Shown here one piece after another: positions 21,004-63,222 of a stretch of DNA of 64,000 nucleotides; position 1 is the first letter of the stretch; the number at the start of each line of letters is the position of its first letter. Below the pieces are notes generated by a model. It did not search any database. It was not told the DNA's origin and saw only the letters and a program-made list of their open reading frames with translations. A program made the position numbers and the translations under genes. The stretch comes from an uncultured Opitutia bacterium (GTDB lineage Bacteria; Verrucomicrobiota; Verrucomicrobiia; Opitutales; UBA953): the NCBI GenBank assembly GCA_903855995.1, contig CAIOAN010000013.1:1-64000 (forward strand), given 5' to 3'.

Positions 21004-22752
21004 ATGTTCAACCTTTCCAAGAATTCCCCCGCACTGGCGTGGGTCAATTGTCTCAATGGCTCCAAGGGTAAGCTGGAAGGCCTGCCCGCCTCCCTGCCCA
21101 CCGACAGCCCTACCCCCACTTTGACGGTCAGTTCTGGGGATACCGGCCTTGCCATCGAACCCAACGGAGCCGGCAGCATCTTGGTCAACGGCACACACCT
21201 CCGCCGCAGCTTCCCCGTCACGGAAGCCACCGCCGTCCAACTGGATGACGCCCTGCTCATTGTCGCCCCAGCCAACCTGGGCGATTTCTCTCAAGTGCGC
21301 CACGACAACTGGGTGCTATTCGATGCCGACACCGGAACTCAGCTCGGCGAATTCCCGCCTAGCCGCTTGCTCGATGTCGCCGCCGAACTGGGACGCGCTA
21401 CCGACACGCTAGCCTGCACGCCGCAGGGACTAGAAATTGGTTTCACGCTTTCACAGATCGCCCCTTTGCTCTCCCCGCGGGCGATGGTGCCCCCAGAGTC
21501 CCACGCGAAACCCCTCCTCGCTGCCGAGCAGAATCGCGGCGCCCATATCTGCCCCGTCTGCTGGACTCGCTTTGATTCGGGCGATGCTCTCAGCATTGCG
21601 GTGCATGAAGATCTCCGCGGCGACCCAATCCTCGGCTCCGACGCACGCCTGCGCTTTCACCCCACGCGCTTCAATGACCAAGGCCTCGCCCTCGACCCGA
21701 TGGGCCTCGCCTGCACCGACATTGCCTGCCCACATTGCCGTCGCCAACTCCCGCCCGGCTATCTGGACATGCCGCACCGCATCGTGTCGCTCATCGGTGC
21801 CCCGAGCTCAGGTAAATCCTACTATCTGGCCGTCCTGACGCGCGTTCTGCAGGACAAACTGCCCGACGACTTCAATCTGGCCTTCAAAGACGGCGACCCC
21901 AGCGGGAACATGCTGTTGAATCAGATGCGCAACGCGCTCTTCTCCGCCTCCACCCCGGAAGACGCCCTGCTCGGCAAGACCGCCCTCGAAGGCGCTACCT
22001 ACGAAAAGCTGCCCCGACTGGGCCGGATGGTCTCCCTGCCCCGGCCGTTCATCTACTCGATTAGTCGCCCCGGCAAACAGCGCCAAGAAACTTCGGTCAT
22101 CCTTTACGATAACGCTGGCGAACATTTCGAACCCGGCATCGATATCCACGACTCGCCCGGTGCGATGCACGTCGCGACATCGGCCGGACTGATCTTCCTA
22201 TTCGACCCGACGGCCAACGCCCGCTTCAAAGCCAAACTGGTCGGTGTCGAAGACCCGCAGTTCGCACTGAAAGGACGCATCGACCAACAGGACAGCATCC
22301 TCGCAGAGATGGAAACCCGCATCAAACGCGTGCTAGGCCTCGCCCAAGGCGAACGCATCCGCACCCCACTCGCCTTCGTCGTCGGCAAATGCGACACTTG
22401 GGAAAAGCTCCTGAGCTCACCCCTCGAACAGGTCATTCAATCCGGCACCCTCGATCTCGACGCGATACAGCGCAACTCCGACCGCGTCCGTGCCGTACTG
22501 GTCTCACTCTGCCCAGGCCTCGTCGCTTCCGCCGAATCTTTAGCGCAGGAGATTCGCTACTTCGCTGCGTCCTCCTTCGGCCACATGCCAGTCATGATCC
22601 AATCCGGACTGAACAAAGGCCGTATCGCCCCCGACCCCCAGCGCCTCGCTCCCGCACACGTGGAAGAGCCCGTCTACTGGCTTATGCACCTGGCTTCTCC
22701 GGAAATGTTCCCGGCTGCTCTGACCAACGCCTCCGCCCCCCAGGCCCGCTAA
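21004..22752 (+). CDS. Zinc-ribbon P-loop GTPase (double-GTPase-2-like), first gene of putative GAP1 system
   Basis: The 582-residue protein has three parts. Residues 1-~100 are beta-rich and FHA-like in pattern (TVSSGDTGLAIEPNG, SILVNGTHL). Residues ~100-155 (DNWVLFDADTGTQLGEFPPS) resemble a GYF_2-type fold. A split zinc ribbon follows: CPVC at ~181 and CPHC at ~241. The G domain carries GAPSSGKS (G1, ~265-272), YDNAGEHF (G3-like, ~368-375) and VVGKCD (G4-like, ~458-463). I recognise it as related to the DO-GTPase2 family found with GAP1 proteins in bacterial conflict systems; the family name is from memory. It should be a cytoplasmic nucleotide switch. It is the first gene of a four-gene operon; 1 nt separates it from the next gene. 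Confidence 0.75.
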   Translation: MFNLSKNSPALAWVNCLNGSKGKLEGLPASLPTDSPTPTLTVSSGDTGLAIEPNGAGSILVNGTHLRRSFPVTEATAVQLDDALLIVAPANLGDFSQVRHDNWVLFDADTGTQLGEFPPSRLLDVAAELGRATDTLACTPQGLEIGFTLSQIAPLLSPRAMVPPESHAKPLLAAEQNRGAHICPVCWTRFDSGDALSIAVHEDLRGDPILGSDARLRFHPTRFNDQGLALDPMGLACTDIACPHCRRQLPPGYLDMPHRIVSLIGAPSSGKSYYLAVLTRVLQDKLPDDFNLAFKDGDPSGNMLLNQMRNALFSASTPEDALLGKTALEGATYEKLPRLGRMVSLPRPFIYSISRPGKQRQETSVILYDNAGEHFEPGIDIHDSPGAMHVATSAGLIFLFDPTANARFKAKLVGVEDPQFALKGRIDQQDSILAEMETRIKRVLGLAQGERIRTPLAFVVGKCDTWEKLLSSPLEQVIQSGTLDLDAIQRNSDRVRAVLVSLCPGLVASAESLAQEIRYFAASSFGHMPVMIQSGLNKGRIAPDPQRLAPAHVEEPVYWLMHLASPEMFPAALTNASAPQAR

Positions 22753-22753
22753 A

Positions 22754-24895: not shown

Positions 24896-24898
24896 CCG

Positions 24899-27847: not shown

Positions 27848-27850
27848 GCA

Positions 27851-28483
27851 ATGTCTCGCCCCACCCAATTCCGTCTTCGCTGGAAAGGTGCCATCTCCGG
27901 CCCCTTCCCCTTACCGCGCATCAGCGAGATGCTGCGCTCAGGTGAGATCAGCCTGATTCATAATATCGAAGTCGATGAGGGTTGGATGACCGTCCGCGAT
28001 TACTTCCGCACCATCGGCCTCAATCGCTCCCCCGCCCAGATGGGCATCAGCGAAAGCAACGCCCGCCGAGACGACGACTCGGCGGCGCCGCCCACCGGCG
28101 CCAATCTTCACACGTCTGAGACGATGTCTGTCGAAACGGGCCGCAACGCCGCCGGCGAATCTCTCGAGCGCACCGTGCGCGAAGGCTATCTCTGGTGTGG
28201 CTCCACTTTCCTCTTTCCGCCGATCTTCGGTCTCTCGGTATACGCCTGGCACCTGCTTTTCGCGGAGACTCCGCCCATCTCGCTCTTCATCGTACTGTGC
28301 CTCACGACGGCCGTCGGTTGCTTCCTGCCTGTTTCGTTCGTGCAAAAAATCGGGCGCACACTGGACCAGGAAGGCCTTGGTGAAATTCGTCAGGCGCAAT
28401 CCAACCTGGCCGTCCTGCTCTCAATTCTGAGCCTAGCCATCTGGCTAGGCGCCTGCTGGTTGCTGGTTCACACCCGCTCCTGA
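27851..28483 (+). CDS. GYF_2-like domain membrane protein, last gene of GTPase operon
   Basis: The 210-residue protein opens with a GYF_2-like domain (residues ~6-55: FRLRWKGAISGPFPLPRISE, then VDEGWMTVRDYF). This small fold is often found in bacterial signalling and membrane proteins where it is thought to bind peptides. A polar Ser/Thr/Asp-rich linker (~65-105) follows. Two or three hydrophobic helices (~117-140, 145-165, 185-207) then anchor it in the inner membrane. Being last in the operon suggests a membrane-docking or sensing partner for the GTPase complex. A short hydrophilic end follows the last helix. Confidence 0.65.
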   Translation: MSRPTQFRLRWKGAISGPFPLPRISEMLRSGEISLIHNIEVDEGWMTVRDYFRTIGLNRSPAQMGISESNARRDDDSAAPPTGANLHTSETMSVETGRNAAGESLERTVREGYLWCGSTFLFPPIFGLSVYAWHLLFAETPPISLFIVLCLTTAVGCFLPVSFVQKIGRTLDQEGLGEIRQAQSNLAVLLSILSLAIWLGACWLLVHTRS

Positions 28484-42514: not shown

Positions 42515-43372
42515 TCACTTGCTGACGCCGCTCATGGGATAGTCGGTGACGACCTTCCACGCGATTTCCTGGAGGAGACGATTGAGCTTTTCCGCCTCGG
42601 GCAGCTTGGCGAGCTGGCTGTTTACAGGTAAGCCCACGGGGCTTCGCTTATAAATAACCGCGAAATGACAGTAGGCGGCCAGCACCCGGATATGGGCCGC
42701 GGGATGTCCAAGCGCGTCGGTGAAAAGCTCGTTCTGCTTGGTCACGCCGGGCGCTTCGCCGCGAATGACCTTATCACGCAGAGCGATCACGGCTTCACCA
42801 CACGGCACGATGACAATCTTGGCCGCAGGGATCTGCCTATTAAATCCAACCACGAAATCTTCCACCATCTTGAAGTAAGGCTCATGCTTGGACCGCAACT
42901 GCGCGACAGTCAGACCATCACGGTCGATGACCTTGGGCCGCCCTGCGGCCGAACGCCACAGCTCGACATCCTCATAGGGAACCCAGTTCTGCTGAAGGGT
43001 GAAGCGCAGCTTGGGGTTATGCTCCAGACCAAGCTTCACGAAGTTCTCGATCCCAGGATCAGGCAGTACGGTGATCGCCATGGTAAACAGATCCGCCGTC
43101 CCCGCGGTCAGCACGGGCTTGGCCTTGTTCTTTTCCACCGGCAGATTCCAGTGCTGAATAACCTGCGAACCACCGATCGAGGAAATTGCGAGTTGCTCGT
43201 GCCCCTGGATCTTAGCGGCCTTGGCCATCTCCGCGACCAGCGGCGGCATCCAGACGTGAAAACTATGTCCGGCGCTCAGGATCTTCAGTCCGGCAGGCGG
43301 TGCCGCCTCCTCGGCCGCAAAGCTGGAAGTAAGCAAGGAAAGGGAGGCCAGCAGGATTGGGGCGAATCGCAT
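42515..43372 (-). CDS. Secreted SGNH-like (DUF4886-type) protein, MRFAP start
   Basis: The 285-residue protein has a signal peptide beginning MRFAPILLASLSLLTSSFAA. The first block is KILSAGHSFHVWM, where GHSFH replaces GxSxT/N. SSIGGSQVIQHWNLP and the C-terminal region follow with DALGHPAAHIRVLAAYCHFA (Asp/His-like block). This fits a divergent SGNH/DUF4886-like fold with the putative catalytic Ser in GHSF. The substrate is unknown. A promoter of leaderless geometry stands 6 nt before the ATG. It is tail-to-tail with the alpha/beta hydrolase gene (17-bp gap). Confidence 0.7.
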   Translation of the reverse strand: MRFAPILLASLSLLTSSFAAEEAAPPAGLKILSAGHSFHVWMPPLVAEMAKAAKIQGHEQLAISSIGGSQVIQHWNLPVEKNKAKPVLTAGTADLFTMAITVLPDPGIENFVKLGLEHNPKLRFTLQQNWVPYEDVELWRSAAGRPKVIDRDGLTVAQLRSKHEPYFKMVEDFVVGFNRQIPAAKIVIVPCGEAVIALRDKVIRGEAPGVTKQNELFTDALGHPAAHIRVLAAYCHFAVIYKRSPVGLPVNSQLAKLPEAEKLNRLLQEIAWKVVTDYPMSGVSK

Positions 43373-43378
43373 GCCGTC

Positions 43379-43406
43379 ATCCTTTTGGCCGACCGATCGG
43401 CGTCAA
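43379..43406 (-). promoter_or_regulatory. Predicted promoter, leaderless arrangement
   Basis: On the minus strand TTGACG (43406-43401), a 16-nt spacer and AAGGAT (43384-43379) stand 6 nt from the ATG. The -35 is strong and the -10 moderate. Confidence 0.45.
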
Positions 43407-43471
43407 TCCCGACCCTTCCGCATGCACGGAAGAGCCAGGACTGCGTCAGGTCGTATGGTCCTTACGCCAAC

Positions 43472-44917
43472 TTACTTGCTGGAGCGATAGGGGGCGGCCG
43501 GGAGTCCGTCCTTACCCGCGGAGAAGACGCTGACTTCGGGGAAATTGGCCCAAGCGTAACGGACCTCCTTGGGCTCCTTCACACCCTCGGCCGCAACGGT
43601 GACATGGACGCCGTCCGCCGAAGCCTTGGCGAAAGCCCACTTACCATCCGCCGCGAGCAGGCCGAAGCCCTTGCCGTCATTCTTCAGAGTCACGGCGCGA
43701 TCGTAGGTGAGCACCCAGGCGTCGCCCTTGCGCTCAGATTTCACGACGCGCGGCGCTTCGCCGTCGGTCCGGGTCTTATAAACACGCTGCAAAGCGACGG
43801 CGGCGAGGCGCTCGCCGACCGGAAGTTTGTCCTTGGGGTGGATGTTCTTCTCATCGCCGAGATCGATGTTCACCGACATCATGGCGCCGGGGACATTATC
43901 GGCGATCCACTCCATGGATTCGCGAATCTTCGGCCAACCGTCGTCTTCGACCGCCAACTCAGGCTTGCGGGCCTTGAAGCGCGGCAACTGGACGATAATG
44001 AAAGGGAACTGCTGACCCCAGGCCTTGTGCCAGGATTTGATCACCGAGCCGAGCACCCACTTGTAGGCCTCGGGCTGGCCGGCATTGGATTCACCCTGAT
44101 ACCAGAGGGCCCCGCGCACGGAGTAACCAACCATCGGGGCGATCATGCCGTTCCAGTTCATATGCGGCCCATTGGACCAGACGGGATTCACTCGGTTATC
44201 TTTCTTGCCACTCTTCTCGAAAGCGACCGCACGGGCCTTCACGCCTGCGGCTTCCTTCTCTTCCCATCCCTTGCCTTCTGGAATGTCGTCATACATTCCC
44301 GCCGGACCCCAGGCCTCGGCCCGCGTACCCCCAATCGAGGAATGAATCAGTCCGACCGGCTGCTTAATGCTGGCGCGCACATCGCGCCCGAAGAAAAACG
44401 CAGCCGCCGAAAAAGAGGCGACCGTATCGGGCGCCGCGATCTTCCAGACACCCGGCATGTCCTCCATGGCCTCCGCCTTGGGCGTATGCGGCACGTAGAA
44501 CACGCGGAGACCGTTGTCACGCGCATGCGATTTGGCTTCGTTCACGACATCCGCCAGGCATCCGCCGACCGACATATCCATATTGGACTGGCCGGAACCG
44601 ATCCAGACTTCGCCGACGATGACGTCGTGCGCGGTGAAGACTTCCTCGCCGGAGCTCACAATCAGATCCATGCCCTGCTCGCTCGGCTTGAGGCCTGCGA
44701 GCGCGGTGCGCCACTTGCCGTCATTACCAGCGGTGGCGGACGCCTCGGAGGAACCGAGTTTCACGCTGACCTTCGAGCCGGGGTGGGCCTTGCCGAAGAC
44801 GGCGGCATCACCGGCCTGCAGGACAGCATGGTCAGAGAAAACAGAGATGAGCTTGAGTTCGCCGGCCGAAGCCAAGGCGGAACAAAACAACAGGATGGGG
44901 GTAATGCGGGGTAGCAT
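43472..44917 (-). CDS. Secreted sialate O-acetylesterase family protein
   Basis: The ~481-residue enzyme starts with a signal peptide (MLPRITPILLFCSALASA). A beta-sandwich N-terminal region (VFSDHAVLQAGDAAVFGKAH) is followed by the SASA core: WIGSGQSNMDMSVGG holds the Ser, IGGTRAEAW follows, WYQGESNAGQPEAY is next, and a C-terminal domain completes it. The order matches sialate 9-O-acetylesterases, and homologues in Verrucomicrobia and Bacteroidota often act on acetylated glycans. The frame is open for another ~230 codons upstream, but that stretch is antisense to the next plus-strand gene. The gene is monocistronic. Confidence 0.92.
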   Translation of the reverse strand: MLPRITPILLFCSALASAGELKLISVFSDHAVLQAGDAAVFGKAHPGSKVSVKLGSSEASATAGNDGKWRTALAGLKPSEQGMDLIVSSGEEVFTAHDVIVGEVWIGSGQSNMDMSVGGCLADVVNEAKSHARDNGLRVFYVPHTPKAEAMEDMPGVWKIAAPDTVASFSAAAFFFGRDVRASIKQPVGLIHSSIGGTRAEAWGPAGMYDDIPEGKGWEEKEAAGVKARAVAFEKSGKKDNRVNPVWSNGPHMNWNGMIAPMVGYSVRGALWYQGESNAGQPEAYKWVLGSVIKSWHKAWGQQFPFIIVQLPRFKARKPELAVEDDGWPKIRESMEWIADNVPGAMMSVNIDLGDEKNIHPKDKLPVGERLAAVALQRVYKTRTDGEAPRVVKSERKGDAWVLTYDRAVTLKNDGKGFGLLAADGKWAFAKASADGVHVTVAAEGVKEPKEVRYAWANFPEVSVFSAGKDGLPAAPYRSSK

Positions 44918-45010
44918 GCCGATAAGACACCCCTTTTGCCCGCAGGTTGCCAGCCCTTTTCCCTTTCTATTAGACTCCTCATCCGCCGGGCGGCGCTTAT
45001 GAGTTATATC

Positions 45011-45754
45011 ATGAAGCCCCTTCCCCTGCTCATCCTGACCCTGTCCGCCGCCGTCTTTGCCGTCGAGGAAAGCCCCCGGCCCACTTTCAACCCCGACCAG
45101 GCGCGTCCGTCCGCCGAAGGCCCCCGCGCCCCGGCCAACGACGTCCAGCGCGGTAATCGCAACAACGCGCCGTTTGCCCAGTTGTCGCCCGAGGAACAAC
45201 TGCGACTCCATGAAGCGATGCAGAAAGCCCAGCAGGATCCAGTTGTGAAGGAAGCGCACGAACAAGCCGCGAAGGCCCAGCAGGCGGCGATGGAGGCTCA
45301 GAAGAAAGCCCGCGAAATCACCGACGACGCGGCGCGCAAGGCCGACCCGTCCGTCGCACCCATTCTCGAGAAAGTGCGTAAAGCCATGGAAGCGCGCCAA
45401 ACCCGCCCACCGAACGCCGAACCCAGCACCCCCCGCAACACCGATGGCGGTAATCGCGCCAACATGAATATCGGCAATGCGCAACGCTTCGACCCGATGG
45501 CCCAACTCACCCCCGATGAACAACGCCGCGTCCGCGAGGCGATGGGCAAGGCCAACGCCGAACCTGCGGTGAAAGAAGCCCGCGAAGCCGCTGCCGCTGC
45601 CCAGAAGAAGGTGATGCAACTCACCGAAGAATTCGCCCGCAAAACGGACCCCGAAATCGGACCGCTCTTGGAGAAACTCCGAAAGTCGATGGAATCAGGC
45701 CGCGCTCGGCCCTCCGAGGAAAGCCCACGTCAGCGCAACAACCGGGGCGAATAA
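45011..45754 (+). CDS. Secreted protein with two copies of an ~80-residue helical module
   Basis: The ~247-residue protein starts with a signal peptide (MKPLPLLILTLSAAVFA); an ATG four codons earlier at 44999 is the alternative. Two similar modules follow. The first runs from QLSPEEQLRLHEAMQKAQ to LEKVRKAMEARQ. The second runs from QLTPDEQRRVREAMGKAN to LEKLRKSMESGR. They are joined by an Asn/Pro-rich spacer, and the ends are Pro/Arg-rich. Each module is amphipathic and Ala/Lys/Glu-rich. No catalytic residues are obvious. It is probably periplasmic. A hairpin terminator follows 20 bp after the stop. Confidence 0.75.
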   Translation: MKPLPLLILTLSAAVFAVEESPRPTFNPDQARPSAEGPRAPANDVQRGNRNNAPFAQLSPEEQLRLHEAMQKAQQDPVVKEAHEQAAKAQQAAMEAQKKAREITDDAARKADPSVAPILEKVRKAMEARQTRPPNAEPSTPRNTDGGNRANMNIGNAQRFDPMAQLTPDEQRRVREAMGKANAEPAVKEAREAAAAAQKKVMQLTEEFARKTDPEIGPLLEKLRKSMESGRARPSEESPRQRNNRGE

Positions 45755-45842: not shown

Positions 45843-47975
45843 ATGACCCTTCCTGCCCCCGTTTCTCACACCCGCCTCCTGCCGGCGCTCCTGCTCGCAC
45901 TGAGCAGTAGCCTACTGGTCTCGCCAGCGCTGGCAGAAGACACCCGCCTCGGCCCCCTCAAAGATCTCAACGGCACCTTCCCCTTCCCCGCCCCGAAGTC
46001 GATCCAGGATTGGGAACCGCGCCGCGATTTCGTCCGCCGCCAGCTACTGGTCTCCCAAGGGCTCTGGCCGATGCCGACAAAGTCGCCGCTCAATGCGGTG
46101 ATCCACGGCAAGATCGATCAAGGGGACTACACGGTCGAGAAGGTCTACTTTGAGAGCGCTCCGGGCTTCTTCGTGACGGGCAACCTTTACCGTCCCAAGA
46201 ACGTCACGGGCAAGGTGCCCGCGGTCGTCTTTCCGCACGGCCACTGGACCGACGCACGTTTCCTCAACCAAGCCGACAAGTTCGTCCGCGAAGAGATCGC
46301 CACCGGACAGGAACGCTTCGAACAAGGCGGCCGCTCGCGCTTCCAGTCGATGTGCGTGCAGCTGGCGCGCATGGGTTGTATCGCTTGGCAGATCGACGCC
46401 CTTAGCGATTCCGATTCAATTCAGTTCTCGCCCGCCATCATCCATAAGTTCGCAAAGCAACGTCCCGAGATGAACCGCACCGAAGGCTGGGGACTCTACA
46501 GCCCCCAGGCCGAAGCCAACCTGCAAAGCGTGATGGGACTACAGACCCTGAATTCGATCCGAAGCATCGACTTCCTGCTCACCCTGCCCGAAGTCGACCC
46601 CACCCGACTCGCGGTCACGGGCTCCAGCGGCGGCGGCACGCAGACGATGCTGTTAGCGGCCACCGACCCACGGCTGGCGCTCTCCTACCCTGTGGTAATG
46701 GTCAGCACGGCAATGCAGGGCGGCTGTTCCTGCGAGAACGCCACGCTCCTCCGCGTGAACTCCGGTAACGTCGAGATTGCCGCCCTCTTCGCCCCGAAAC
46801 CCCAAGGCATGAACACCGCCAACGACTGGACGAAAGAAATGGCTACCAAGGGCTTCCCCGACCTACAGAAACTCTACGGGCTCTACGGCAAGAAGGACTA
46901 CGTGACGTTGCAACGCGGCGAACACTTCCCTCATAACTACAACGCGGTCACGCGCATGGGCTTCTACGAAGTGCTAAACCGCCACTTCAAGCTGGGGCAG
47001 CAGTCGCCCATCGTCGAAAAGGATTACGCCCCCCTGCCCAAGGAGAAGCTGACGGTCTGGGACGACGCCCATCCGGCTCCAAAATCCGGCGACCCGGAAT
47101 TCGAACGCGGCCTGTTGAAATGGCTGAAGTCCGACGCCGAGCAACAGCTCCTCGCCGCCGCCAAGACGCCCGAAGGTCGCGAACACACCCTCCGCCCGGC
47201 TATCGAGGCCATCATCGGACGTCCCTACGCCCACGCCGGCCAAGTCTCATTCCCTGACGCCAGCACGCAGTGGCGCGACTCGCACTTCCGCACGCAAGGC
47301 AAACTCCTCAACACCACTTACGGTGAAGAAATCACCATCGACTGGCTCCAGCCGATCAAGCCGACCGGCGAAGTGGTGATCTGGCTCGATGATGCCGGCA
47401 AAGGTGCTGCCCGCCTCGCCGACGGCACCATCCGTCCTGAACTACAGGAACTCATCGACCGCGGCGTGGGCGTGCTCACGGCCGACCTGTTCCTCCAAGA
47501 CGATAAGAAGCTGAAACAGACCCGCGTCGTGACCGGCCCCCGGGAAGTCCCGGCCTACACCTTCGGGTATAACCACGCGGTCTTCGCCCAGCGTGTGCAC
47601 GACGTCATGACCATCACAAGCTACCTGCTCACCCCCCGCGACAGTTCCCAGCCGGCGGTGAAGAAGGTCTCGCTCGCCGGCTTCGGCAAGATGGGAGCCA
47701 TCGCCGCCGCCGCCCGCGCCGCGACCGGCAAAGCCATCACCAAGGCCGCTGTCGACACGGGCACCTTCCGCTTCGGGCAGCTCCTGGATTACCGCGACCC
47801 GATGTTCCTGCCTGGCGGCTCCAAGTATCTGGACGTGCCCGGCCTGCTCTGCGTCGCCTCCGCCCAGCCGCTCTGGGTCGCCGGCGAGAAAGACGCCGCA
47901 CTCTTTCCTTCGGCCTCGCTACACACGGACGGCACCGATGCCAAGACTGCCGCCGCGGAGTGGCTCCTCAAATAA
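45843..47975 (+). CDS. Secreted acetyl-xylan-esterase-like alpha/beta hydrolase
   Basis: The 710-residue protein has a long signal peptide ending SPALAED. The catalytic domain has VPAVVFPHGHWTDARF (oxyanion/nucleophile-proximal), LAVTGSSGGGTQTMLLAA (GxSxG nucleophile) and HFPHNYNAVTR in the second half. It is much longer than single-domain acetylxylan esterases; residues ~470-710 (from LNTTYGEEITIDWLQPIKPT) appear to form a second, beta-rich domain with an alpha/beta-hydrolase-like tail. It belongs to a group of large carbohydrate esterases common in these bacteria. Its stop overlaps the next gene's ATG by one base (TAATG), so the two are coupled. Confidence 0.82.
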   Translation: MTLPAPVSHTRLLPALLLALSSSLLVSPALAEDTRLGPLKDLNGTFPFPAPKSIQDWEPRRDFVRRQLLVSQGLWPMPTKSPLNAVIHGKIDQGDYTVEKVYFESAPGFFVTGNLYRPKNVTGKVPAVVFPHGHWTDARFLNQADKFVREEIATGQERFEQGGRSRFQSMCVQLARMGCIAWQIDALSDSDSIQFSPAIIHKFAKQRPEMNRTEGWGLYSPQAEANLQSVMGLQTLNSIRSIDFLLTLPEVDPTRLAVTGSSGGGTQTMLLAATDPRLALSYPVVMVSTAMQGGCSCENATLLRVNSGNVEIAALFAPKPQGMNTANDWTKEMATKGFPDLQKLYGLYGKKDYVTLQRGEHFPHNYNAVTRMGFYEVLNRHFKLGQQSPIVEKDYAPLPKEKLTVWDDAHPAPKSGDPEFERGLLKWLKSDAEQQLLAAAKTPEGREHTLRPAIEAIIGRPYAHAGQVSFPDASTQWRDSHFRTQGKLLNTTYGEEITIDWLQPIKPTGEVVIWLDDAGKGAARLADGTIRPELQELIDRGVGVLTADLFLQDDKKLKQTRVVTGPREVPAYTFGYNHAVFAQRVHDVMTITSYLLTPRDSSQPAVKKVSLAGFGKMGAIAAAARAATGKAITKAAVDTGTFRFGQLLDYRDPMFLPGGSKYLDVPGLLCVASAQPLWVAGEKDAALFPSASLHTDGTDAKTAAAEWLLK

Positions 47976-49088: not shown

Positions 49089-49850
49089 TTACTTCAGGAC
49101 TTGGGCGGCGAAGCCCTGCATGAGCTTAGCCTGGGCTTCGTCCACCTTGCCGGTCCATTTGGGTGCCGGCTCTTTTACGCCGTAGATCTTACCGAAGAAG
49201 ACCAAAGCGTTGAGATAGGTACCCACGACCTCGGGATGCGAATTATCCTTCTGATGCAGCCGAATGGGCTTAGGCGAAGCGTAGTTGAGTTCCCAAGCAT
49301 CGCCGCACGGAACAAAGGTCGCGCCGTTATCCTTTGCGACCACGCCATACCACTTCCGGAGGCGGGACTGCATCTCCTTAGGGTCGGCACCGACGTCGGG
49401 CCCCTGCTTAGCTGACTTCCAATAGTCGGCATGGCGTGCCCACGTCTCATAGAAGTAGACCGTAGCCTTAGGGCTCTTGGCCCGCACGCGTTTGCAAAGC
49501 TCAGCGGCGCTCTCGAGGAACTCCCTTCGCGTCGCCTCATCCGTCTCGGCAATGGCCGGCTCCTGGCTCTGCCCCTGAAGAACGACGACATCCCAACCGC
49601 CCTCCTCGATTAACTTCATACTCCCTGCGATGCCCAGCTGCTGCTTGAGCGTACGGCCACCGGGCGTAGAGGATTTCACCACCGGCTCCCTGCGGCCGGC
49701 GCTCTTCACGACGTCCAAGAAGACGTCGGGGAGTTTATTGACTCCAGTGTAGCTGTTGCCGATGAAAAGAACGCGTTGTGGATCCTCGGCGAAAGCGGCC
49801 GTGGCAAGCATCAGTAAGGCGACCAACCATGACATCGGGGCGAATCTCAT
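49089..49850 (-). CDS. Secreted SGNH-like hydrolase, MRFAP start
   Basis: The 253-residue protein begins with a signal peptide (MRFAPMSWLVALLMLATAAFA). The catalytic blocks are RVLFIGNSYTGVNKLPDVF (GNSYT, Ser nucleophile), VVLQGQSQEPA (Gln/Ser block) and KDNSHPEVVGTYLNAL (block V with His). This fits the DUF4886/SGNH family acting as acetylesterase. The frame starts 4 codons earlier, but the signal peptide supports the MRFAP start, which matches two other genes in the island. It is convergent with the oxidoreductase gene (7-bp gap). Confidence 0.85.
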   Translation of the reverse strand: MRFAPMSWLVALLMLATAAFAEDPQRVLFIGNSYTGVNKLPDVFLDVVKSAGRREPVVKSSTPGGRTLKQQLGIAGSMKLIEEGGWDVVVLQGQSQEPAIAETDEATRREFLESAAELCKRVRAKSPKATVYFYETWARHADYWKSAKQGPDVGADPKEMQSRLRKWYGVVAKDNGATFVPCGDAWELNYASPKPIRLHQKDNSHPEVVGTYLNALVFFGKIYGVKEPAPKWTGKVDEAQAKLMQGFAAQVLK

Positions 49851-49857
49851 GGCGGTC

Positions 49858-49885
49858 AGCATTCCGTCGAATCCAACGATGACAA
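49858..49885 (-). promoter_or_regulatory. Possible promoter of SGNH gene
   Basis: On the minus strand TTGTCA (49885-49880), a 16-nt spacer and AATGCT (49863-49858) stand 7 nt from the ATG. The -10 is weak. Confidence 0.3.
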
Positions 49886-49892
49886 CCCCGTC

Positions 49893-52800
49893 TTACCAGA
49901 GAACCGGCTGCGTGACGCCGATATTACGCTGTACCTCAGGGTCGGTCGGGTCTGATGGCAGCTTCTTCCACAAATCGAGATAGGCCGTCTCCCCGAATTG
50001 GCGCCCGGCGAAAAGGAGGCTCGGCTGACGGGCCGGCCAACCCTCCCAAGCTTGGACATCGGGCTTGAGCGTCCACTTGGATTTGTCGGCGAGGAACGGA
50101 TAGAGAAACGCCACGGCCTTACGGATGCCACGACCGTCGGGCAGCGTGAACTCCCAGAGATTATCCTCCTTGGTCGAGAGCACCTGGCAAAGGAGCACCA
50201 TGTTATCCAGCTGGAAGATCGAGTAGCCGTAAGGCTTGGTGCGACCCAGCTCCAACGGGAAGCCGCCATCGACGGCCATCTGCTTGCCGACGAACACTTC
50301 CTTATACTGCTTACGACAGGCGGCGAGTTTCGCCTGATCTCCGATGAAATCCGCGTAGACGGAGAGCTGCAGGTAGAAAGCGACGGCGTGGTTATTCTTC
50401 GCCGCAGCCTCCTCCTTGCCGTTCTTGCTGGAAACCATCCATTCAGCAAGTTCGCGGAACCAACCGCGCAGGTCTTTCGCCATTCCGGACGGGAACGCCG
50501 GCGACCGCTCGAGGGTCCTCACGGCAGCGGGCACTTCGATCAGGTGCAGGGCGTCGATGACGCCGATACCACGCCCTGGCGAGACGCCGGGGACGGCCTG
50601 CGCGAAGTTGAGGTTCGGGTTCATGCGCAGCTTGGCATCGAGGAAGAAAACCCTGAGCAGCTCGGCGGCCTTGACGGCATATTTATCGTCACCGGTGATC
50701 TTATAGGCGGCAGCCAGCGCCGACACGGAGTCGCGCAGGGTCTTCACGACGAGACGATGCTGGCTAAAGTTTTCCGGATTGGTCTCCCCATCCCGGCGAA
50801 TGTAAGGGAGGCCGTTGGGTTTGCTGGCATCCGGCCACCAGTAATCGCCATTCGAGTAGAAATCATTGGGCCCACCCTCACTGAGCTTAGCCGGAAACGC
50901 GGTGAGGCTGACTGGAGCCTGCGTCAGGGCCTTCGCGGCGGCCTTCAGGATACGCTCCCGGTCAATAGAGGCCACATCCACGACGACCTGGGGTGCGACA
51001 GGTGTCCCGGCGATCGCCAGCGCCACGATAGCAGAGGCGTCAGCCTCGGGCTTAGCCTTTGCCTTGCTCTTGCTCTTCGACTTGGCCGCGGGCTTTTCGG
51101 CCTTCGGCTTGGTCCCATCCGACTTCGGAGCGGCTTCGGCCACAGACTTGTTCTCGACGTTCAGGAACTGCGTGCGACGGCCCTCGGAGGAAGCGCTGAA
51201 GACGGCCTTATGGCCGACGACCTTGGCGCTGATCTGCGCTCGGCCGTTGTACATCTGCACGACGCGGGAACCAGTCGAGGTGCCGAGATTGTCCAGCAGC
51301 TGCCCTTCCCCGATCATGCCGAAACGCACGATATTCGAGCAGTCGAGGCACGGCACACCCTCGGCGTCGGCCATGCGCGCTTCGATCGTGACCACGCCAT
51401 CCTTCTGGGCGAGTTCGGTCAGGGTGAGCTTGGCCGGCTTGCCCCAGGACTTGGACTGGTAACCGACGGTAAGCTCGTCGACGAGCTCGCCTGCGGCGCT
51501 CTTGGCGACGGCACGCAGCTTATTGGGGCCATCCTTGAGCACGACATTCCAGCGCAGACCGGCGGCCGGGAAATCCTGGCTGTCGCGCTTCCTGACGCCG
51601 AGACTCTTCCCATCGGCGAAGAGCTCGACTTCGGCGCAGTTGGAATAGACGCGGAACTCTTTGGCTTCGCCGGGCTTGCCCCAGCGCACAGGCCACTCAT
51701 GACCAAGCAGACGCACCATCGGCTTCTCCGACCAATAGCTCTGGAAGACGTAATAGCCTTCCTTCGGGGTGCCGTCGCGTTCGACGACGCCCTTCTGGTT
51801 CACGCGCGGCACGGGATTCTCCGGGCGCAGCGGCGTGGCGAAGTCCTTAAAAATCCACTGGGCGCTGCCAGTGAGCCACGGCATCTTCTCCTGCTCCTTG
51901 AGGTGCCAGTCGAAGAGGTTGACCATGTAGCTTTCAGACCAATCGCCGTCTTTGGACATGCGAACCTTGCCGCCGGTCTTCTTGTAGGCCTTGCCCTTCT
52001 CGGCGGTCCCTTCGCCCACGGCCACCTTTTCGATCATCTTCTCAGGCTCTTCCGAGAAACGGCGGGCATGGCTGTCACCGCCCCACTCGGCATGGAAGAA
52101 ATGCGTAGTGTCTTTGAGGGCCTTCTCAGCAGAGGCGGCGTACTCGGTATAGCGACCGGAATACCAGCCAGCCCAGATGCTCGGGGAATAGACGTCGACG
52201 ATGTCCTTGCAGAAATCGCAGCGGCGAATGGTCGTCGGACGCGACGCGTCCAGCTTGTGCGCAAGGTCGTTCAATTCCTTCATGAAGGCGCGGATACCTT
52301 CCTTGTCCTGCGTCTCGAAGTCGCCCGGCCAGTCGTTTTCGTTGCCGAGGCCCCACATGATGACAGACGGATGGTTGCCATGCTGCTCAATGAGGGCCTT
52401 GAGCATGTCGCGGCACTGCTGCTTGTAACGGTCACCGCCGATACCACCGCGGCACCACGGAATCTCCTCCCAAACCAGAAGTCCAAGCTCGTCGCAAAGC
52501 TTCAGCACCAACGGCGCCTGCTGGTAGTGGCCCAGCCGCACGAAATTGGCCCCCATGTCCTTGATGGCGACGAGCGTCTGGCGGACGACCTCATCCGGTA
52601 CGGCCGCAGCCACGCCAGCATGGTCCTCGTGGTAGTGCGTACCACGCAACAACAGGCGCTCACCGTTGAGCTTGAACGGACCGTGCTCGACCCACTCGAA
52701 ACTCCGGAAACCGAATGCCTCGCTGAGCACCTGCTCACCCTGCTTGGATTTAAGCGTGACGACACACTGATAAAGATTCGGGGACTTCGGTGACCATAGC

Positions 52801-53576
52801 GCCGGCGAGTCGACCTCCAACACCCAGCCTGCAGACGGGGCCGCTTCGGAACTCTTCACGACGTTGCCCTTGGCATCCTTGATCGCCACCACCACCTGCA
52901 CCGTGTCGGCAAGGGCGCCTGGGTTACTGAGCTTCAATTCAACCTCAACCCGACCGTGACCGGCCTGAATGGACGGATGGATCGCCACGCGTTCGATCGC
53001 AATGGCTGGGAGATAAACCAGGCTGACATGTCGATAAAGACCCCCGTAGCGATTGAAGTCGCTGAGATCCGAAGGGATACTCTCGGCGTCGCGCGAGTTA
53101 TCACACAGCACGGCGACCGGCACCTCGCCCTTGAACTCCGGACGGGCGGCGGCCTTGGCCGCCGCCTCGGTGATGTCCACGGTCCATTCGTCGTAACCGC
53201 CGACATGCTCACCGACTTTCTGGGTGTAGACAAAGACCTGCGACTTCTGACCGGCGCCGTCGAATTTCAGGAGCGTGCGGCCGTTCGGATAGGGGTTGGC
53301 AATCTTAAGTTTGGTGCGATACCAGCCCTGACCCTGATAGTAGCGGATGTCCGGATCGACGGAGTCACGACCGTTGAAGCAGTGCGGCAAGACGACGGGC
53401 GACCACGTGACGTTATCGCTGGCGGCGTCGCCACGCCAGACCTCCCAGGTACTGCCGAGCGTACCCTGATAATATTCCCAGCCAGCGGACAGGCGCTGGA
53501 CGGTCTCGGCCGCGGACGAAGAGACGGCAAGCAGGACGAGGAGAAGACGGACGAACGTGTTCATAGCAAATTTCAT
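49893..53576 (-). CDS. Secreted GH2 glycoside hydrolase fused to a C-terminal alginate-lyase-type domain
   Basis: The ~1227-residue protein has two catalytic units. Residues ~25-800 are a GH2 enzyme: sugar-binding jelly roll (RYYQGQGWYRTKLKI), Ig-like domain, TIM barrel with IMWGLGNENDW (acid/base Glu, ~410) and FHAEWGGDSHA (nucleophile Glu, ~495), then accessory beta domains. A Lys/Ala/Pro-rich linker (~825-850) leads to residues ~880-1227. These contain DYWWPDASKPNGLPYIRRDG and the helical barrel of alginate-lyase (PL5/PL38-like) proteins. The pair suggests cleavage of a uronic-acid polysaccharide and its oligomers. The ATG is at 53576, but MNTFVRLLL at 53564 also gives a good signal peptide. 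A TTGAAA-17-GCTAAT promoter favours the latter. Confidence 0.88.
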   Translation of the reverse strand: MKFAMNTFVRLLLVLLAVSSSAAETVQRLSAGWEYYQGTLGSTWEVWRGDAASDNVTWSPVVLPHCFNGRDSVDPDIRYYQGQGWYRTKLKIANPYPNGRTLLKFDGAGQKSQVFVYTQKVGEHVGGYDEWTVDITEAAAKAAARPEFKGEVPVAVLCDNSRDAESIPSDLSDFNRYGGLYRHVSLVYLPAIAIERVAIHPSIQAGHGRVEVELKLSNPGALADTVQVVVAIKDAKGNVVKSSEAAPSAGWVLEVDSPALWSPKSPNLYQCVVTLKSKQGEQVLSEAFGFRSFEWVEHGPFKLNGERLLLRGTHYHEDHAGVAAAVPDEVVRQTLVAIKDMGANFVRLGHYQQAPLVLKLCDELGLLVWEEIPWCRGGIGGDRYKQQCRDMLKALIEQHGNHPSVIMWGLGNENDWPGDFETQDKEGIRAFMKELNDLAHKLDASRPTTIRRCDFCKDIVDVYSPSIWAGWYSGRYTEYAASAEKALKDTTHFFHAEWGGDSHARRFSEEPEKMIEKVAVGEGTAEKGKAYKKTGGKVRMSKDGDWSESYMVNLFDWHLKEQEKMPWLTGSAQWIFKDFATPLRPENPVPRVNQKGVVERDGTPKEGYYVFQSYWSEKPMVRLLGHEWPVRWGKPGEAKEFRVYSNCAEVELFADGKSLGVRKRDSQDFPAAGLRWNVVLKDGPNKLRAVAKSAAGELVDELTVGYQSKSWGKPAKLTLTELAQKDGVVTIEARMADAEGVPCLDCSNIVRFGMIGEGQLLDNLGTSTGSRVVQMYNGRAQISAKVVGHKAVFSASSEGRRTQFLNVENKSVAEAAPKSDGTKPKAEKPAAKSKSKSKAKAKPEADASAIVALAIAGTPVAPQVVVDVASIDRERILKAAAKALTQAPVSLTAFPAKLSEGGPNDFYSNGDYWWPDASKPNGLPYIRRDGETNPENFSQHRLVVKTLRDSVSALAAAYKITGDDKYAVKAAELLRVFFLDAKLRMNPNLNFAQAVPGVSPGRGIGVIDALHLIEVPAAVRTLERSPAFPSGMAKDLRGWFRELAEWMVSSKNGKEEAAAKNNHAVAFYLQLSVYADFIGDQAKLAACRKQYKEVFVGKQMAVDGGFPLELGRTKPYGYSIFQLDNMVLLCQVLSTKEDNLWEFTLPDGRGIRKAVAFLYPFLADKSKWTLKPDVQAWEGWPARQPSLLFAGRQFGETAYLDLWKKLPSDPTDPEVQRNIGVTQPVLW

Positions 53577-53650
53577 CAATTAGCCAGCATCAGCCCGCGG
53601 CTTTCAATGCCAGAGAACTTAATCCTGGCTTAAGAATCGGCCAAAGTGCC

Positions 53651-55240
53651 TTATTTTTCGGCAATTCCCCAGACCTTTTCGACCACCTTGAGCATGCCCG
53701 GGTCCTTGGCCTGTAATTCTGCCCGATCAAACGGCTCAAAGTCGTTGCGATCAAAATAGGACTCGGTGCTCTCGGCGAAGTATTCCATCTGATTGTTCAT
53801 CGCGTAAGCCTTCGAAGGCTTGTCGGCGAACTTCTCGCCGGTCCAACGTTTCACGGCGTCATACTTCCCCGACGCTTTCGCCTGCTGATAGGCGCCGAGG
53901 ATATCTGGATTCTGATAACCGCCGGGAACGATTTTGTCGTGATAGGAATGGGCAAGCTCGTGCAGGACAAAGACTGGCATGCGCTTCGTCTCAGGCTCGA
54001 ACCGTTCGACATTCGTGAACTCCACGGATTTCGCCAATGCGATCTCGCGACCTGATTGCTTGATCCAGTCCAACCCCCCGTGGTATTCGGCGGTGGTGCG
54101 GATGCCCGGATACGGCAGGGTGAAGTTCAGCGGGGTCTTCTTAAGTTCAGCGACGGCCCTCGCCGGCACGAGTCGGATGATTTTCTCGAGATGCTGATCA
54201 AGCATGCCGACGGCCTTCTCGACGGCGGCGGCGTTTCTGGCGATCAGACGTTCGTCGATGCGCAACGTCCAGCCGCGCAGCTCACGCACCTGGCGATCGC
54301 GCCCGGCCATCTGCACGGCGGCCTTCCCCAAAGCCTCCCCGACGAGGAAATAGGTCTCGGCATTCCCAAATTCGTGGTGTCCATGGCTCGGATTGGGCGA
54401 ATCCTCCGCCTGGCGGACAAACTCGCGGGTGGGCACGAAAACGACGTTATCCTTGAATTCAGGATGATTCGCGACAGCCGCCTGCGCCTTGCGCAGCGCG
54501 GTCCATTCCTTCGGCGCCTCGACCCATGCGCCGGTGAGTTCACCGATGATCACAGGCAGCCTGGGGGCGTCGAACTCCTTGCGGATATCATGAATCAGGC
54601 AGGTAAGATTGTGCTCATACTCCGGGAGCGCGATCTTCGCGTTCACGCCGTCGTTCCATCCCTGATACCAGACGAACCCCGCGAGCTCCACGGGCGCACC
54701 ATCATAACCCGGGAAATCCTTTCGCAGATTCGCCAGCGCTTCGCGAATTTCTGCGACCATTTTAAGATAATAAGAACCGGTCTCGCCGCCGGCACTCGGC
54801 GGGCGGAAATCACGATAGAGACTCTTGCCCCCCCAGGCGGTCTTGATGAGCAGCACCTGATCTCGGTAGGCCTCGCCGACAATATGGCCGAAGGCGAACT
54901 CCGGGCCGAAATGATGGACGTCGCCATACACGGCGTACCCCAACCCGAGATCACCAGCGAGCAGCGGCTGCTTCTCGCGCTGATACCGCACCCAGACATC
55001 CTTCCGCACCACCCATTGGCCATCCTTATCCTTCAGCCGGGCATAACGTTCACCGGCATCCGGACGGGCCATGACTTCAACGAGCGTGCCTTTGCCGCCA
55101 TTGTAATCCTTGCCCTTCAAGTCCACGACGGCCTGCCCTTCCATGTTCGACTGGCCGGCCAGGATGAAGACCTTGAGTTTCTTGACGGGCTCGGCGGCCG
55201 ATAAGGCACACCAGCAAAGGAAGATCGGGGCAAATCTCAT
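53651..55240 (-). CDS. Sialate-acetylesterase-like (SASA) protein fused to HExxH metallopeptidase-like domain, MRFAP start
   Basis: The 529-residue protein has a signal peptide (MRFAPIFLCWCALSAA). Residues ~20-310 are a SASA/DUF303 acetylesterase: FILAGQSNMEGQA (Ser, ~30), FVWYQGWNDGVNAK, and GHHEFGNAETYF (block V). Residues ~330-529 are a second domain with FVLHELAHSYHDKIVPGG (HExxH at ~427) and MEYFAESTESYFDRNDFEPF (~483; probable third metal ligand Glu). The second domain resembles ATLF-type (anthrax-toxin-lethal-factor-like) metallopeptidases. The linkage is unusual. A leaderless promoter ends 6 nt before the ATG. Confidence 0.82.
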   Translation of the reverse strand: MRFAPIFLCWCALSAAEPVKKLKVFILAGQSNMEGQAVVDLKGKDYNGGKGTLVEVMARPDAGERYARLKDKDGQWVVRKDVWVRYQREKQPLLAGDLGLGYAVYGDVHHFGPEFAFGHIVGEAYRDQVLLIKTAWGGKSLYRDFRPPSAGGETGSYYLKMVAEIREALANLRKDFPGYDGAPVELAGFVWYQGWNDGVNAKIALPEYEHNLTCLIHDIRKEFDAPRLPVIIGELTGAWVEAPKEWTALRKAQAAVANHPEFKDNVVFVPTREFVRQAEDSPNPSHGHHEFGNAETYFLVGEALGKAAVQMAGRDRQVRELRGWTLRIDERLIARNAAAVEKAVGMLDQHLEKIIRLVPARAVAELKKTPLNFTLPYPGIRTTAEYHGGLDWIKQSGREIALAKSVEFTNVERFEPETKRMPVFVLHELAHSYHDKIVPGGYQNPDILGAYQQAKASGKYDAVKRWTGEKFADKPSKAYAMNNQMEYFAESTESYFDRNDFEPFDRAELQAKDPGMLKVVEKVWGIAEK

Positions 55241-61137: not shown

Positions 61138-63222
61138 CTACCTGTTAACGGTGACGCTGCTGACCGCGTTCTTGCTGGCATTGTAAGCCTTACCGGTGAA
61201 CTGCACATGGGTGACGGCGAACGTCACACTTCCAGTGGTCGTCGCGAGCATACGCTCCGAGACGACTTCCACTTGACCGTTGCGATCTGTCCGCACCTGG
61301 ACCTTCCCGTTGAGGATGCCAGAGGCGGTCAGCGAGACGGTCGCTCCGGACACGGGTTTACCGGCATTATCAGAGATGGTCACGGTGCAGGCGAAGTAAC
61401 CCATGGCGTTGCGATTCGTCGGGCGTGGACGGACCCCGCTATCGTCATCGTCGTTATCCGCGTCGCGGCGCACAGCCCTCCCATTGGTGATGTCAAACCA
61501 AGCGGCGGTCATACCAGAGACATCCACGTAAGCCGTCGTCGGCGGCGGGGGTGGAGGCGGCGGCGCCGCGGTGACGTTGATGACGGTGGTCGTGGTGTTG
61601 GTGAGATTGATTCCATCAATCACGGTGAGCGTGGCGGTGAAATTACCGACCGCGGTGTAGACGTGCACCGGATTGGCGAGGCTCGAAGTCACCGTGCCGT
61701 CACCGAAATTCCACAGATAACGCAGCGCCCCGGCGTTGGTCGTCGTGGAATGAGCCGAAGAGAAACTCACCGACAACGGGGCGGCACCGTTGGTCGGAGT
61801 CGTGCCCACGGTCGAAGCCACGGGAGGATATACGGGTGGAGGCGGCGGCGTGCTCGTCCCGACCCAGCTACCCGTCAGCGAGAAACGGCCGACCGACGCA
61901 TAGTTGCTGTAATTGGTCGCCCCGGTGCCATCGGCTGCTCCGCGGAGAACGATATAATAGATACCCGGGACGGTCAGAGTCGCGGAAAGCGATGCGTTCA
62001 TCCCATTGGTCCCCGTCGCGACGCCGGAGGCCACGGTCAGCCCGGCGGTGTTCACCAAACTAAGTGCAATCTTGAGATCCGGATCCCGGTTGGCCGCCAA
62101 CGCCGAGAGATTAAGTGCGCCGACCCCCGCCTGGATGGCATACCAAGCACTGTCATTGGCATTACGAATAATCCCGCCGGCGGTGACCGAGGTACCGGTG
62201 ACCGGGGTGGCATTGGTCGGGCCGGTGCCATGATCTGCCACGATGAGCGGCACACGCGAGGTAATGATGGCAAGTTGATCCTGCGGATTATTCGCGAGCG
62301 GGTATTCGCCCTTACTCCATTGGGTGACGGCTTTGTAATAACTCACGCCCATGATCGGCGCCCAATCACCCTGCCCTCCAAAATATTCCACCCCGGCGGC
62401 CGTTCCCGATGCGACCGTGCCGTCATGATAAAGACCCAAGGTGTGCCCGCATTCATGGGCCGCAGCTTCTGCGATCGCTTTGTTAGAATTGCCCAACTGC
62501 GCCGGGAAGACGAACGCCGGGATGTCATTCGAGGCCGCCGAAGCGGCGACGACTCCGCCGAAGGTGCCGACATACGCCACGCCGCCGGCCGCCGAACCAA
62601 GCCAGTCGAGACTCGAACCACCGATCACGCAACGTACGCCATACTGCGCATCGGTGCTGGAGGTCCGCCGAATGGCCTCTTCCCCCGGATCCTGCGTGGT
62701 GACGTCGATGTCCCACGGTGCGTAATCCTCCGAGACACGACGCCAGATATCCTGGATGACCGCGAGCTCGGTGTCAGAGAATGCCGTCGGGTTGCCATCC
62801 AAATCAAACGGCGGGGTGGTGATGGTCGCGCTCGTGCTGTTCCACGGCGTGCCGGTGGTGGCGTGTCCTTTGAAGTCGAGATAGATCACCTTCTGGGCAC
62901 CCGGACGCGAATGCAGGAAAAAAGTCTGCGCGAGCGGCTGAATCGCCGTGCCGGTGAACGGCGAATTATCCGTGCCGACGACATCCTTGTTTGGCAGCGC
63001 CTGGCAGATGACGAGCGCTCGATTCGCCGCATCCAGATGCACGTGCGGACTGTTCCGCGCAAAGCGTCGGAACGCGACAGGCTCAGCCCCAGCCTGAGAC
63101 GCCGCTTGGTTCAGTTCGTTGTCGCTGGCCTTATTGGCTGGGCGATGTTGCGGACCTTCGGCCGCGTGGAGAGAAAACGCCGCCAATAAACCGACGATCA
63201 GAGCACGGGGTAGCTTGAACAT
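61138..63222 (-). CDS. Secreted metzincin-type zinc metallopeptidase with PKD and Ig-like domains
   Basis: The 694-residue protein has a signal peptide (MFKLPRALIVGLLAAFSLHA). A metzincin catalytic domain has AAAHECGHTLGLYHDG (HExxHxxGxxHD, ~248-263) and a Met-turn-like APIMGVSYY. A ~130-residue beta-rich region follows. A Pro-rich linker (~452) leads to a PKD domain with RYLWNFGDGTVTSS (~500). A second Pro-rich linker (~555) leads to a C-terminal Ig-like domain (GKPVSGATVSLTASG). It is presumably exported to degrade proteins or glycoproteins. A promoter of leaderless geometry with GATAAT stands 6 nt from the ATG. Confidence 0.9.
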   Translation of the reverse strand: MFKLPRALIVGLLAAFSLHAAEGPQHRPANKASDNELNQAASQAGAEPVAFRRFARNSPHVHLDAANRALVICQALPNKDVVGTDNSPFTGTAIQPLAQTFFLHSRPGAQKVIYLDFKGHATTGTPWNSTSATITTPPFDLDGNPTAFSDTELAVIQDIWRRVSEDYAPWDIDVTTQDPGEEAIRRTSSTDAQYGVRCVIGGSSLDWLGSAAGGVAYVGTFGGVVAASAASNDIPAFVFPAQLGNSNKAIAEAAAHECGHTLGLYHDGTVASGTAAGVEYFGGQGDWAPIMGVSYYKAVTQWSKGEYPLANNPQDQLAIITSRVPLIVADHGTGPTNATPVTGTSVTAGGIIRNANDSAWYAIQAGVGALNLSALAANRDPDLKIALSLVNTAGLTVASGVATGTNGMNASLSATLTVPGIYYIVLRGAADGTGATNYSNYASVGRFSLTGSWVGTSTPPPPPVYPPVASTVGTTPTNGAAPLSVSFSSAHSTTTNAGALRYLWNFGDGTVTSSLANPVHVYTAVGNFTATLTVIDGINLTNTTTTVINVTAAPPPPPPPPTTAYVDVSGMTAAWFDITNGRAVRRDADNDDDDSGVRPRPTNRNAMGYFACTVTISDNAGKPVSGATVSLTASGILNGKVQVRTDRNGQVEVVSERMLATTTGSVTFAVTHVQFTGKAYNASKNAVSSVTVNR

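What the first reader, a model, noticed from the sequence alone, without database searches (positions are those of the whole stretch)
49893..53576. Natural fusion of a GH2 glycoside hydrolase with an alginate-lyase-type polysaccharide lyase
Seen: one continuous frame with a complete GH2 active site (GNEN acid/base, FHAEWGG nucleophile), a Lys/Ala/Pro-rich linker, and a C-terminal lyase-type domain (DYWWPDASKPNGLPYIRR). A hydrolase plus lyase in one chain suggests coupled breakdown of a uronic-acid polysaccharide. I do not recall this pairing as common.
Basis: partly seen in the sequence, partly recalled or inferred. Interest (0 to 1): 0.65.

Follow-up and report, generated by a model that had tools for sequence, protein, structure and literature searches.

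The report
Glucuronidase fused to a polysaccharide lyase
One secreted bacterial protein carries two sugar-cutting enzymes, a glucuronidase and a PL38-type lyase, and relatives in at least two bacterial phyla keep the same two enzymes as one gene or as neighbouring genes, so they very probably attack the same glucuronic-acid-rich polysaccharide together.

Summary
Confirmed, on the minus strand: 49893-53579 encodes one 1227-aa secreted protein. It has a complete GH2 beta-glucuronidase (52% identical to the P. merdae GUS and B. uniformis GUS-3 structures), a disordered linker, and a PL38-type lyase with every catalytic residue known from BoPL38. It is not an assembly join: three congeneric genomes carry the same fused ORF, both halves show dN/dS below 0.1, and all catalytic residues are invariant in relatives. 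The pairing is not rare. Among 80 related loci from Verrucomicrobiota, Planctomycetota-labelled MAGs and Bacteroidota, 40 are fused and 35 have GH2 directly followed by the lyase. Inside the window's genus the GH2 half was later lost, at least twice on the tree, leaving signal peptide plus lyase. Neighbours (GH88, UxuA, UxaC, KduI) point to breakdown of a beta-glucuronic-acid polymer; in the window's own operon, esterases suggest an acetylated one. I found no paper describing the fusion, but both families are known and the architecture is visible in RefSeq isolates. Unresolved: this genome lacks known enzymes (GH88/105, KduI) for the lyase's unsaturated products, and enzymatic activity and substrate are untested.

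The parts
49893..53579 (-). fused gene GH2 beta-glucuronidase - linker - PL38-type lyase, 1227 aa (ATG at 53576, stop 49893-49895)
53505..53576 (-). signal peptide (residues 1-24, judged by eye); its DNA is homologous to the 5' end of the stand-alone lyase genes of sister species
51141..53504 (-). GH2 half (residues 25-812): sugar-binding, Ig-like, TIM barrel, DUF4982, C5-like domains
   Evidence: nearest structures 6d7j/6dxu and 6d1p
52335..52346 (-). GH2 acid/base motif GNEN, E413
   Evidence: E413 invariant in 84 relatives
52077..52094 (-). GH2 nucleophile motif HAEWGG, E497
   Evidence: E497 invariant in 84 relatives
51792..51800 (-). N593-Q-K595, the NxK carboxylate-reading motif of beta-glucuronidases
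   Evidence: N593 and K595 invariant in 84 relatives; meaning of NxK from general knowledge
50961..51140 (-). linker (residues 813-872), Lys/Ala/Pro-rich, predicted disordered
   Evidence: model residues 787-835 pLDDT below 50
49896..50960 (-). PL38-type lyase half (residues 873-1227), PF05426
50388..50396 (-). lyase NNH motif, H1063 = BoPL38 H243
50223..50225 (-). lyase Y1118 = BoPL38 Y298
53651..55240 (-). SASA-type acetylesterase, 71 bp upstream, same strand (putative operon)
   Evidence: synteny in G016, G030, G003
49089..49862 (-). SGNH/GDSL-type hydrolase, 30 bp downstream, same strand (putative operon)
   Evidence: synteny in G016, G022, G030, G003 and G027/L041
43472..45619 (-). second SASA-type acetylesterase (715 aa) in the neighbourhood
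   Evidence: cluster shared by four genus genomes
45843..47975 (+). AXE1-like esterase, conserved neighbour

Best explanation
The gene makes a secreted two-headed enzyme. The PL38 half cuts inside a beta-linked polyuronide by beta-elimination, using H1063 and Y1118 with N1062, R1112 and D929. The GH2 half removes beta-linked glucuronic acid one residue at a time from saturated non-reducing ends by the usual retaining two-glutamate mechanism (E413, E497; N593/K595 reading the carboxylate). A flexible linker holds both on one chain. The most likely substrate is a beta-1,4-glucuronan-type polymer; in the window's lineage it is probably O-acetylated and first de-esterified by the SASA and SGNH enzymes of the same putative operon. 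Shown: architecture, conserved catalytic residues, purifying selection, recurrent pairing and fusion, genomic context. Inferred: both activities, their cooperation, the polymer and its acetylation.
For: GH2: 52% identical to P. merdae GUS and B. uniformis GUS-3; E413, E497, N593, K595 invariant in 84 relatives. Lyase: best solved relatives are 3nfv and BoPL38/8bdq, E 2e-68 and 3.5e-51; H243 and Y298 of BoPL38 (PMC13169297) map exactly to H1063 and Y1118, invariant except one undetermined X. Pairing: 75 of 80 loci have GH2 then this lyase on one strand, 40 fused and 35 separate. Context: GH88-family genes in 24 of 31 Bacteroidota loci, UxuA in 10; Bacteroides sp. GM023 has a lean locus of GH88-like, GH2, PL38, PL38, SusC, SusD; Catenovulum adriaticum flanks the pair with uxaC (fate of GlcA), kduI and GH88 (fate of the unsaturated uronate) and no other annotated sugar-specific glycosidase. 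Known PL38 enzymes cut glucuronan, alginate, HA or CS. Esterases around the window gene. The own genome has UxaC.
Against: The own genome (97% complete) has no GH88/105, KduI or UxuA match, so the fate of the lyase product is unexplained there. Stand-alone lyases inside the genus show the GH2 half is dispensable. In a phylum sample only 3 of 23 lyase-bearing genomes had this fusion and 2 an adjacent GH2. 31 of 44 Verrucomicrobiota loci have sulfatases nearby, hinting at a sulfated polymer in that phylum. An endo-lyase leaves unsaturated ends that block an exo-glucuronidase, so synergy on a plain homopolymer is limited.
Confidence: 0.62

Rival explanations
1. The substrate is a sulfated glucuronic-acid-containing polysaccharide (glycosaminoglycan-like or algal): the lyase cuts hexosamine- or deoxysugar-(1,4)-GlcA bonds and the GH2 removes terminal GlcA.
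For: Sulfatases in 31 of 44 Verrucomicrobiota loci; 32 sulfatase matches in the own genome; RiPL38 and the Akkermansia muciniphila PL38 degrade HA and chondroitin sulfate.
Against: No sulfatase family among the tested genes of the window locus, esterases instead; no sulfatase cluster in the 31 Bacteroidota loci; the lean Bacteroides and Catenovulum loci carry no annotated HexNAc, rhamnose or galactose enzymes.
Confidence: 0.2
2. The lyase half is an alginate (polymannuronate) lyase and the GH2 serves a side chain or a mixed polymer.
For: PF05426 is named Alginate_lyase; BoPL38 and Aly38A act on alginate.
Against: The own genome has only two PF05426 genes; partner loci carry glucuronate-pathway genes (uxaC, UxuA); BoPL38's H297 next to the catalytic Tyr is Gly or Ala in nearly all partner lyases.
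Confidence: 0.1
3. The GH2 half removes the 4,5-unsaturated residue made by its own lyase partner, so the protein is a self-contained lyase plus unsaturated-uronyl hydrolase replacing GH88/GH105.
For: No GH88/105 or KduI match in the own genome; only 1 of 44 Verrucomicrobiota loci has a GH88-family gene nearby.
Against: In Bacteroidota and Catenovulum the same GH2 sits beside a GH88-family gene, so the roles look separate; complete GUS motif set.
Confidence: 0.06
4. The fused ORF is an assembly or prediction artefact, or one half is inactive.
For: None found; one species (G021) has a broken stand-alone lyase.
Against: Same fused frame in independent genomes and phyla, dN/dS below 0.1 in both halves, invariant catalytic residues.
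Confidence: 0.02

Closest known systems
Parabacteroides merdae GUS (6d7j, 6dxu) and Bacteroides uniformis GUS-3 (6d1p)
   Same: 52% identical over the whole GH2 half, same GNEN, nucleophile and NxK motifs; the Bacteroides sp. GM023 ortholog lies next to a PL38 gene
   Different: free-standing proteins without a lyase domain
Bacteroides ovatus PL38 lyases: BoPL38 (8bdq) and the alginate-lyase entry 3nfv
   Same: same PF05426 domain; NNH/Tyr/Arg/Asp catalytic set conserved; 3nfv is a close homolog of the second lyase gene in the Bacteroides sp. GM023 GH2-PL38 locus
   Different: single-domain; the window lyase belongs to a separate clade with about 15 clade-specific invariant residues; BoPL38 H297 is Gly here
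Glucuronan lyases of PL38 (CUL-I of Brevundimonas, TpPL38A of Trichoderma)
   Same: family and probable substrate type
Bifunctional GH2 glucuronidase/arabinofuranosidase (NCBIfam NF049877)
   Same: a GH2 beta-glucuronidase fused to a second carbohydrate-active domain
   Different: partner is not a lyase; the window protein scores 166 bits against a cut-off of 1800

Membership tests
GH2 beta-glucuronidase | GH2 domain set with acid/base Glu and nucleophile Glu | tested here: met
GH2 beta-glucuronidase | NxK motif reading the glucuronate carboxylate | tested here: met
   N593, K595, invariant in 84 relatives
GH2 beta-glucuronidase | Passes a curated beta-glucuronidase equivalog cut-off | tested here: not met
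   best NF041462 (beta-galactosidase GalA) 274 bits vs 900 and NF050095 (beta-glucuronidase LacZ4) 273 vs 950; the GH2 half lies outside those curated equivalogs although nearest to solved GUS enzymes, so it is filed as GUS-like, not as one of those equivalogs
GH2 beta-glucuronidase | Hydrolysis of beta-glucuronides | not testable with these tools
   needs enzyme assay
PL38 | PF05426 domain with sequence homology to characterised PL38 members | tested here: met
PL38 | catalytic His243/Tyr298 (BoPL38 numbering) plus N242, R292, D108 | tested here: met
   H1063, Y1118, N1062, R1112, D929
PL38 | (alpha/alpha) toroid fold | tested here: inconclusive
   model all-helical in this half at moderate confidence; homologs solved; Foldseek rows shown match only the GH2 half
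PL38 | formal CAZy assignment and lyase activity | not testable with these tools
   no dbCAN/CAZy library; needs assay
PL5 (A1-III type alginate lyase) | nearest solved relatives are PL5 structures | tested here: not met
   the only lyases found at E up to 10 are 3nfv and the BoPL38 entries

The most novel reading that the evidence does not exclude
In Verrucomicrobia that lack GH88/GH105 the fused protein is a self-contained degrader: the GH2 half accepts the 4,5-unsaturated glucuronyl end made by the lyase half, an activity I do not know to have been reported for GH2.
Probability: 0.07. Interest if true: 0.72.

Novelty: new variant of a known kind. Interest (0 to 1): 0.43.

Why it matters
The fusion works as guilt by association. 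It ties a gut beta-glucuronidase subfamily (B. uniformis GUS-3 / P. merdae GUS), of an enzyme family studied mainly for drug glucuronides, to a PL38 lyase and thereby to polyuronide breakdown as its likely native role, and it marks out a PL38 clade by its conserved partner. Sister species that lost only the GH2 half are a natural experiment on what the tether adds.

Tried and rejected
Assembly artefact (rejected: independent genomes, selection). PL5 membership (no PL5 structure hit). Plus-strand gene (long antisense frames; the minus-strand frame carries all domains and the selection signal). First gene choice at 42665-44911(+) replaced by the SASA gene 43472-45619(-) after comparison with sister genomes. 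The G022 row of alignment A1 was on the wrong strand; not used later. Claim that this lyase clade always goes with GH2: rejected by the phylum sample (5 of 23). Papers: PL38 with GH2, fusion, glucuronidase or GH105 gave no description of the pair; several key papers are not in the library. NCBIfam names for the neighbours gave little.

Full report
WHAT IS THERE. The feature lies on the minus strand, 49893-53579. It is one uninterrupted frame of 1227 aa from ATG (53576) to the stop at 49893-49895, starting with a signal-peptide-like stretch. Pfam finds the GH2 set (Glyco_hydro_2_N, _2, _2_C, DUF4982, weak C5) at about 69-781 and Alginate_lyase PF05426 at 898-1168 with 247.7 bits. The nearest solved structures are, for the GH2 half, P. 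merdae beta-glucuronidase and B. uniformis beta-glucuronidase 3 (about 980 bits, 52% identity) and, for the lyase half, 3nfv and BoPL38/8bdq. No PL5 structure appears. A predicted model has the two folded halves and a disordered linker (model residues 787-835, pLDDT under 50; mean pLDDT 73).

CATALYTIC RESIDUES. GH2: acid/base E413 (GNEN), nucleophile E497 (HAEWGG), and N593-Q-K595, the NxK motif of glucuronidases (meaning from general knowledge). All are invariant in 84 related GH2 halves. Lyase: a paper on PL42 (PMC13169297) reports that in BoPL38 Y298 is the base for syn-elimination on mannuronate and H243 for anti-elimination on guluronate. In the alignment to 8bdq the NNH histidine is residue 243 and the LHYS tyrosine 298. 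They correspond to H1063 and Y1118, with D929, N1062 and R1112 also conserved. All are invariant in 82 partner lyases, apart from one undetermined X at Y1118. BoPL38's H297 is not conserved; it is Gly here.

NOT AN ARTEFACT. Three other congeneric genomes carry the same fused gene at 89-90% identity in the same syntenic place, between a SASA esterase and an SGNH hydrolase. dN/dS is 0.05-0.09 in the GH2 half, 0.03-0.05 in the lyase and 0.19-0.30 in the linker. Linkers of other fused proteins vary from about 17 to 75 residues in the segment compared, which suits a loose tether rather than a rigid interface (inference).

HOW COMMON. A scan of 84,980 genomes kept the best 80 of at least 590 loci. 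In 40 the two halves are one ORF, in 35 the GH2 gene is directly followed by the lyase gene on the same strand, and in 5 the GH2 stands alone. Fused forms occur in Verrucomicrobiota, in Planctomycetota-labelled MAGs, and in Bacteroidota isolates (Parapedobacter, Sphingobacterium) plus a rumen MAG. Separate neighbours occur in Pedobacter, Chitinophaga, Bacteroides, Dysgonomonas and, on a plasmid, the gammaproteobacterium Catenovulum. On the GH2 tree the fused/separate state changes at least six times across well-supported branches. These loci were chosen by similarity to both halves, so the share is biased. In an even sample of 387 genomes of the phylum, 23 have the lyase at E below 1e-70: three are fused to this GH2 (the window genome among them), two have it adjacent, one is fused to a different GH2, and others are alone or fused to a chondroitinase-B-like domain, to PF14099 or to a second PL38.

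HISTORY IN THE GENUS. Four sister species have a stand-alone lyase 85-92% identical to the fused one, in G030 on a 40-kb contig at the same SASA-lyase-SGNH site. On protein and DNA trees these stand-alone lyases fall inside the fused clade (AU p 0.03 against the fused ones forming one group; three changes of state). Their 5' untranslated DNA (69-87% identical) and signal-peptide DNA (62-75%) match those of the fused gene well above shuffled sequence. The simplest reading is that the GH2 cassette was deleted in frame between signal peptide and lyase at least twice, since the junctions differ between G030/G003 and G020/G023. Direction is by parsimony, not proof.

CONTEXT AND SUBSTRATE. In Bacteroidota 24 of 31 loci have a GH88-family gene and 10 a UxuA gene; in Verrucomicrobiota 31 of 44 have sulfatases. 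The leanest loci are most informative. Bacteroides sp. GM023 has a GH88-like gene, GH2, two PL38 genes and SusC/SusD; its GH2 matches the P. merdae GUS at 1339 bits and its second lyase is a close homolog of 3nfv (722 bits). Catenovulum has uxaC and a TRAP transporter on one side and kduI, a dehydrogenase, GH88 and a TonB receptor on the other, that is, routes for free glucuronate and for the unsaturated product, with no other annotated sugar-specific glycosidase nearby. This favours a glucuronic-acid homopolymer. Around the window gene the neighbours are two SASA esterases, an AXE1-like esterase, a BD-FAE-like esterase and the SGNH hydrolase, so an O-acetylated polymer is likely there (inference). 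Characterised PL38 enzymes cut glucuronan, alginate, HA or CS, so sequence alone does not fix the substrate.

OPEN POINT. The window's genome (97% complete) has UxaC but no match for GH88/105, KduI or UxuA. How it uses the lyase's unsaturated product is unexplained. Possibilities are an unrecognised enzyme, export as public goods, or, least likely, the GH2 half itself.

VERDICT. A real, functional-looking bifunctional enzyme of two known families; a widespread, recurrently fused pair that I could not find described in the literature held here. The biochemistry is untested.

Noticed in passing
L024, L011, L035, L036 (sister species G030, G003, G023, G020): Stand-alone lyases with the promoter and signal peptide DNA of the fused gene: apparent in-frame loss of the 2.4-kb GH2 cassette, at least twice.
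   Followed up: yes
L038:8341-9528 (G021): Stand-alone lyase broken into two frames: pseudogene or sequencing error.
   Followed up: no
L095, L100, L102-L105, L155: GH2 gene followed by a 768-783 aa tandem PL38-PL38 protein.
   Followed up: partly
L064:5806-10572: Planctomycetota-labelled MAG protein of 1588 aa with order PL38 - GH2 - PL38.
   Followed up: no
L156:2591-5035; L161:3849-5906; L165:3178-5475; L167:913-5043: Other fusions of the same lyase clade: chondroitinase-B-like (PF14592)-PL38, PL38-PF14099 (two), and a different GH2 fused to PL38.
   Followed up: partly
L058:5233-9537: Tyrosine-phosphatase-like domain in front of GH2-PL38 (1434 aa).
   Followed up: no
window 21004-28483: Four-gene run with weak double-GTPase (PF19993) and GAP1-N2 (PF20013) matches, then a 982-aa protein without a family and a 210-aa ORF; no PADLOC hit. 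Possibly a conflict or signalling module.
   Followed up: partly
window 61138-63222: Reprolysin-like metallopeptidase with PKD domain, minus strand.
   Followed up: no
G000:C1:8263-9465 (L031): Second PL38-type lyase of the genome (37% identical), next to a sulfatase, in the other PL38 clade.
   Followed up: partly
L042, L046, L051, L062, L064, L067, L068 record titles: MAG names such as Akkermansia muciniphila, Candidatus Kuenenia stuttgartiensis or Chthoniobacter flavus for these contigs look unreliable; phylum counts based on them are approximate.
   Followed up: no
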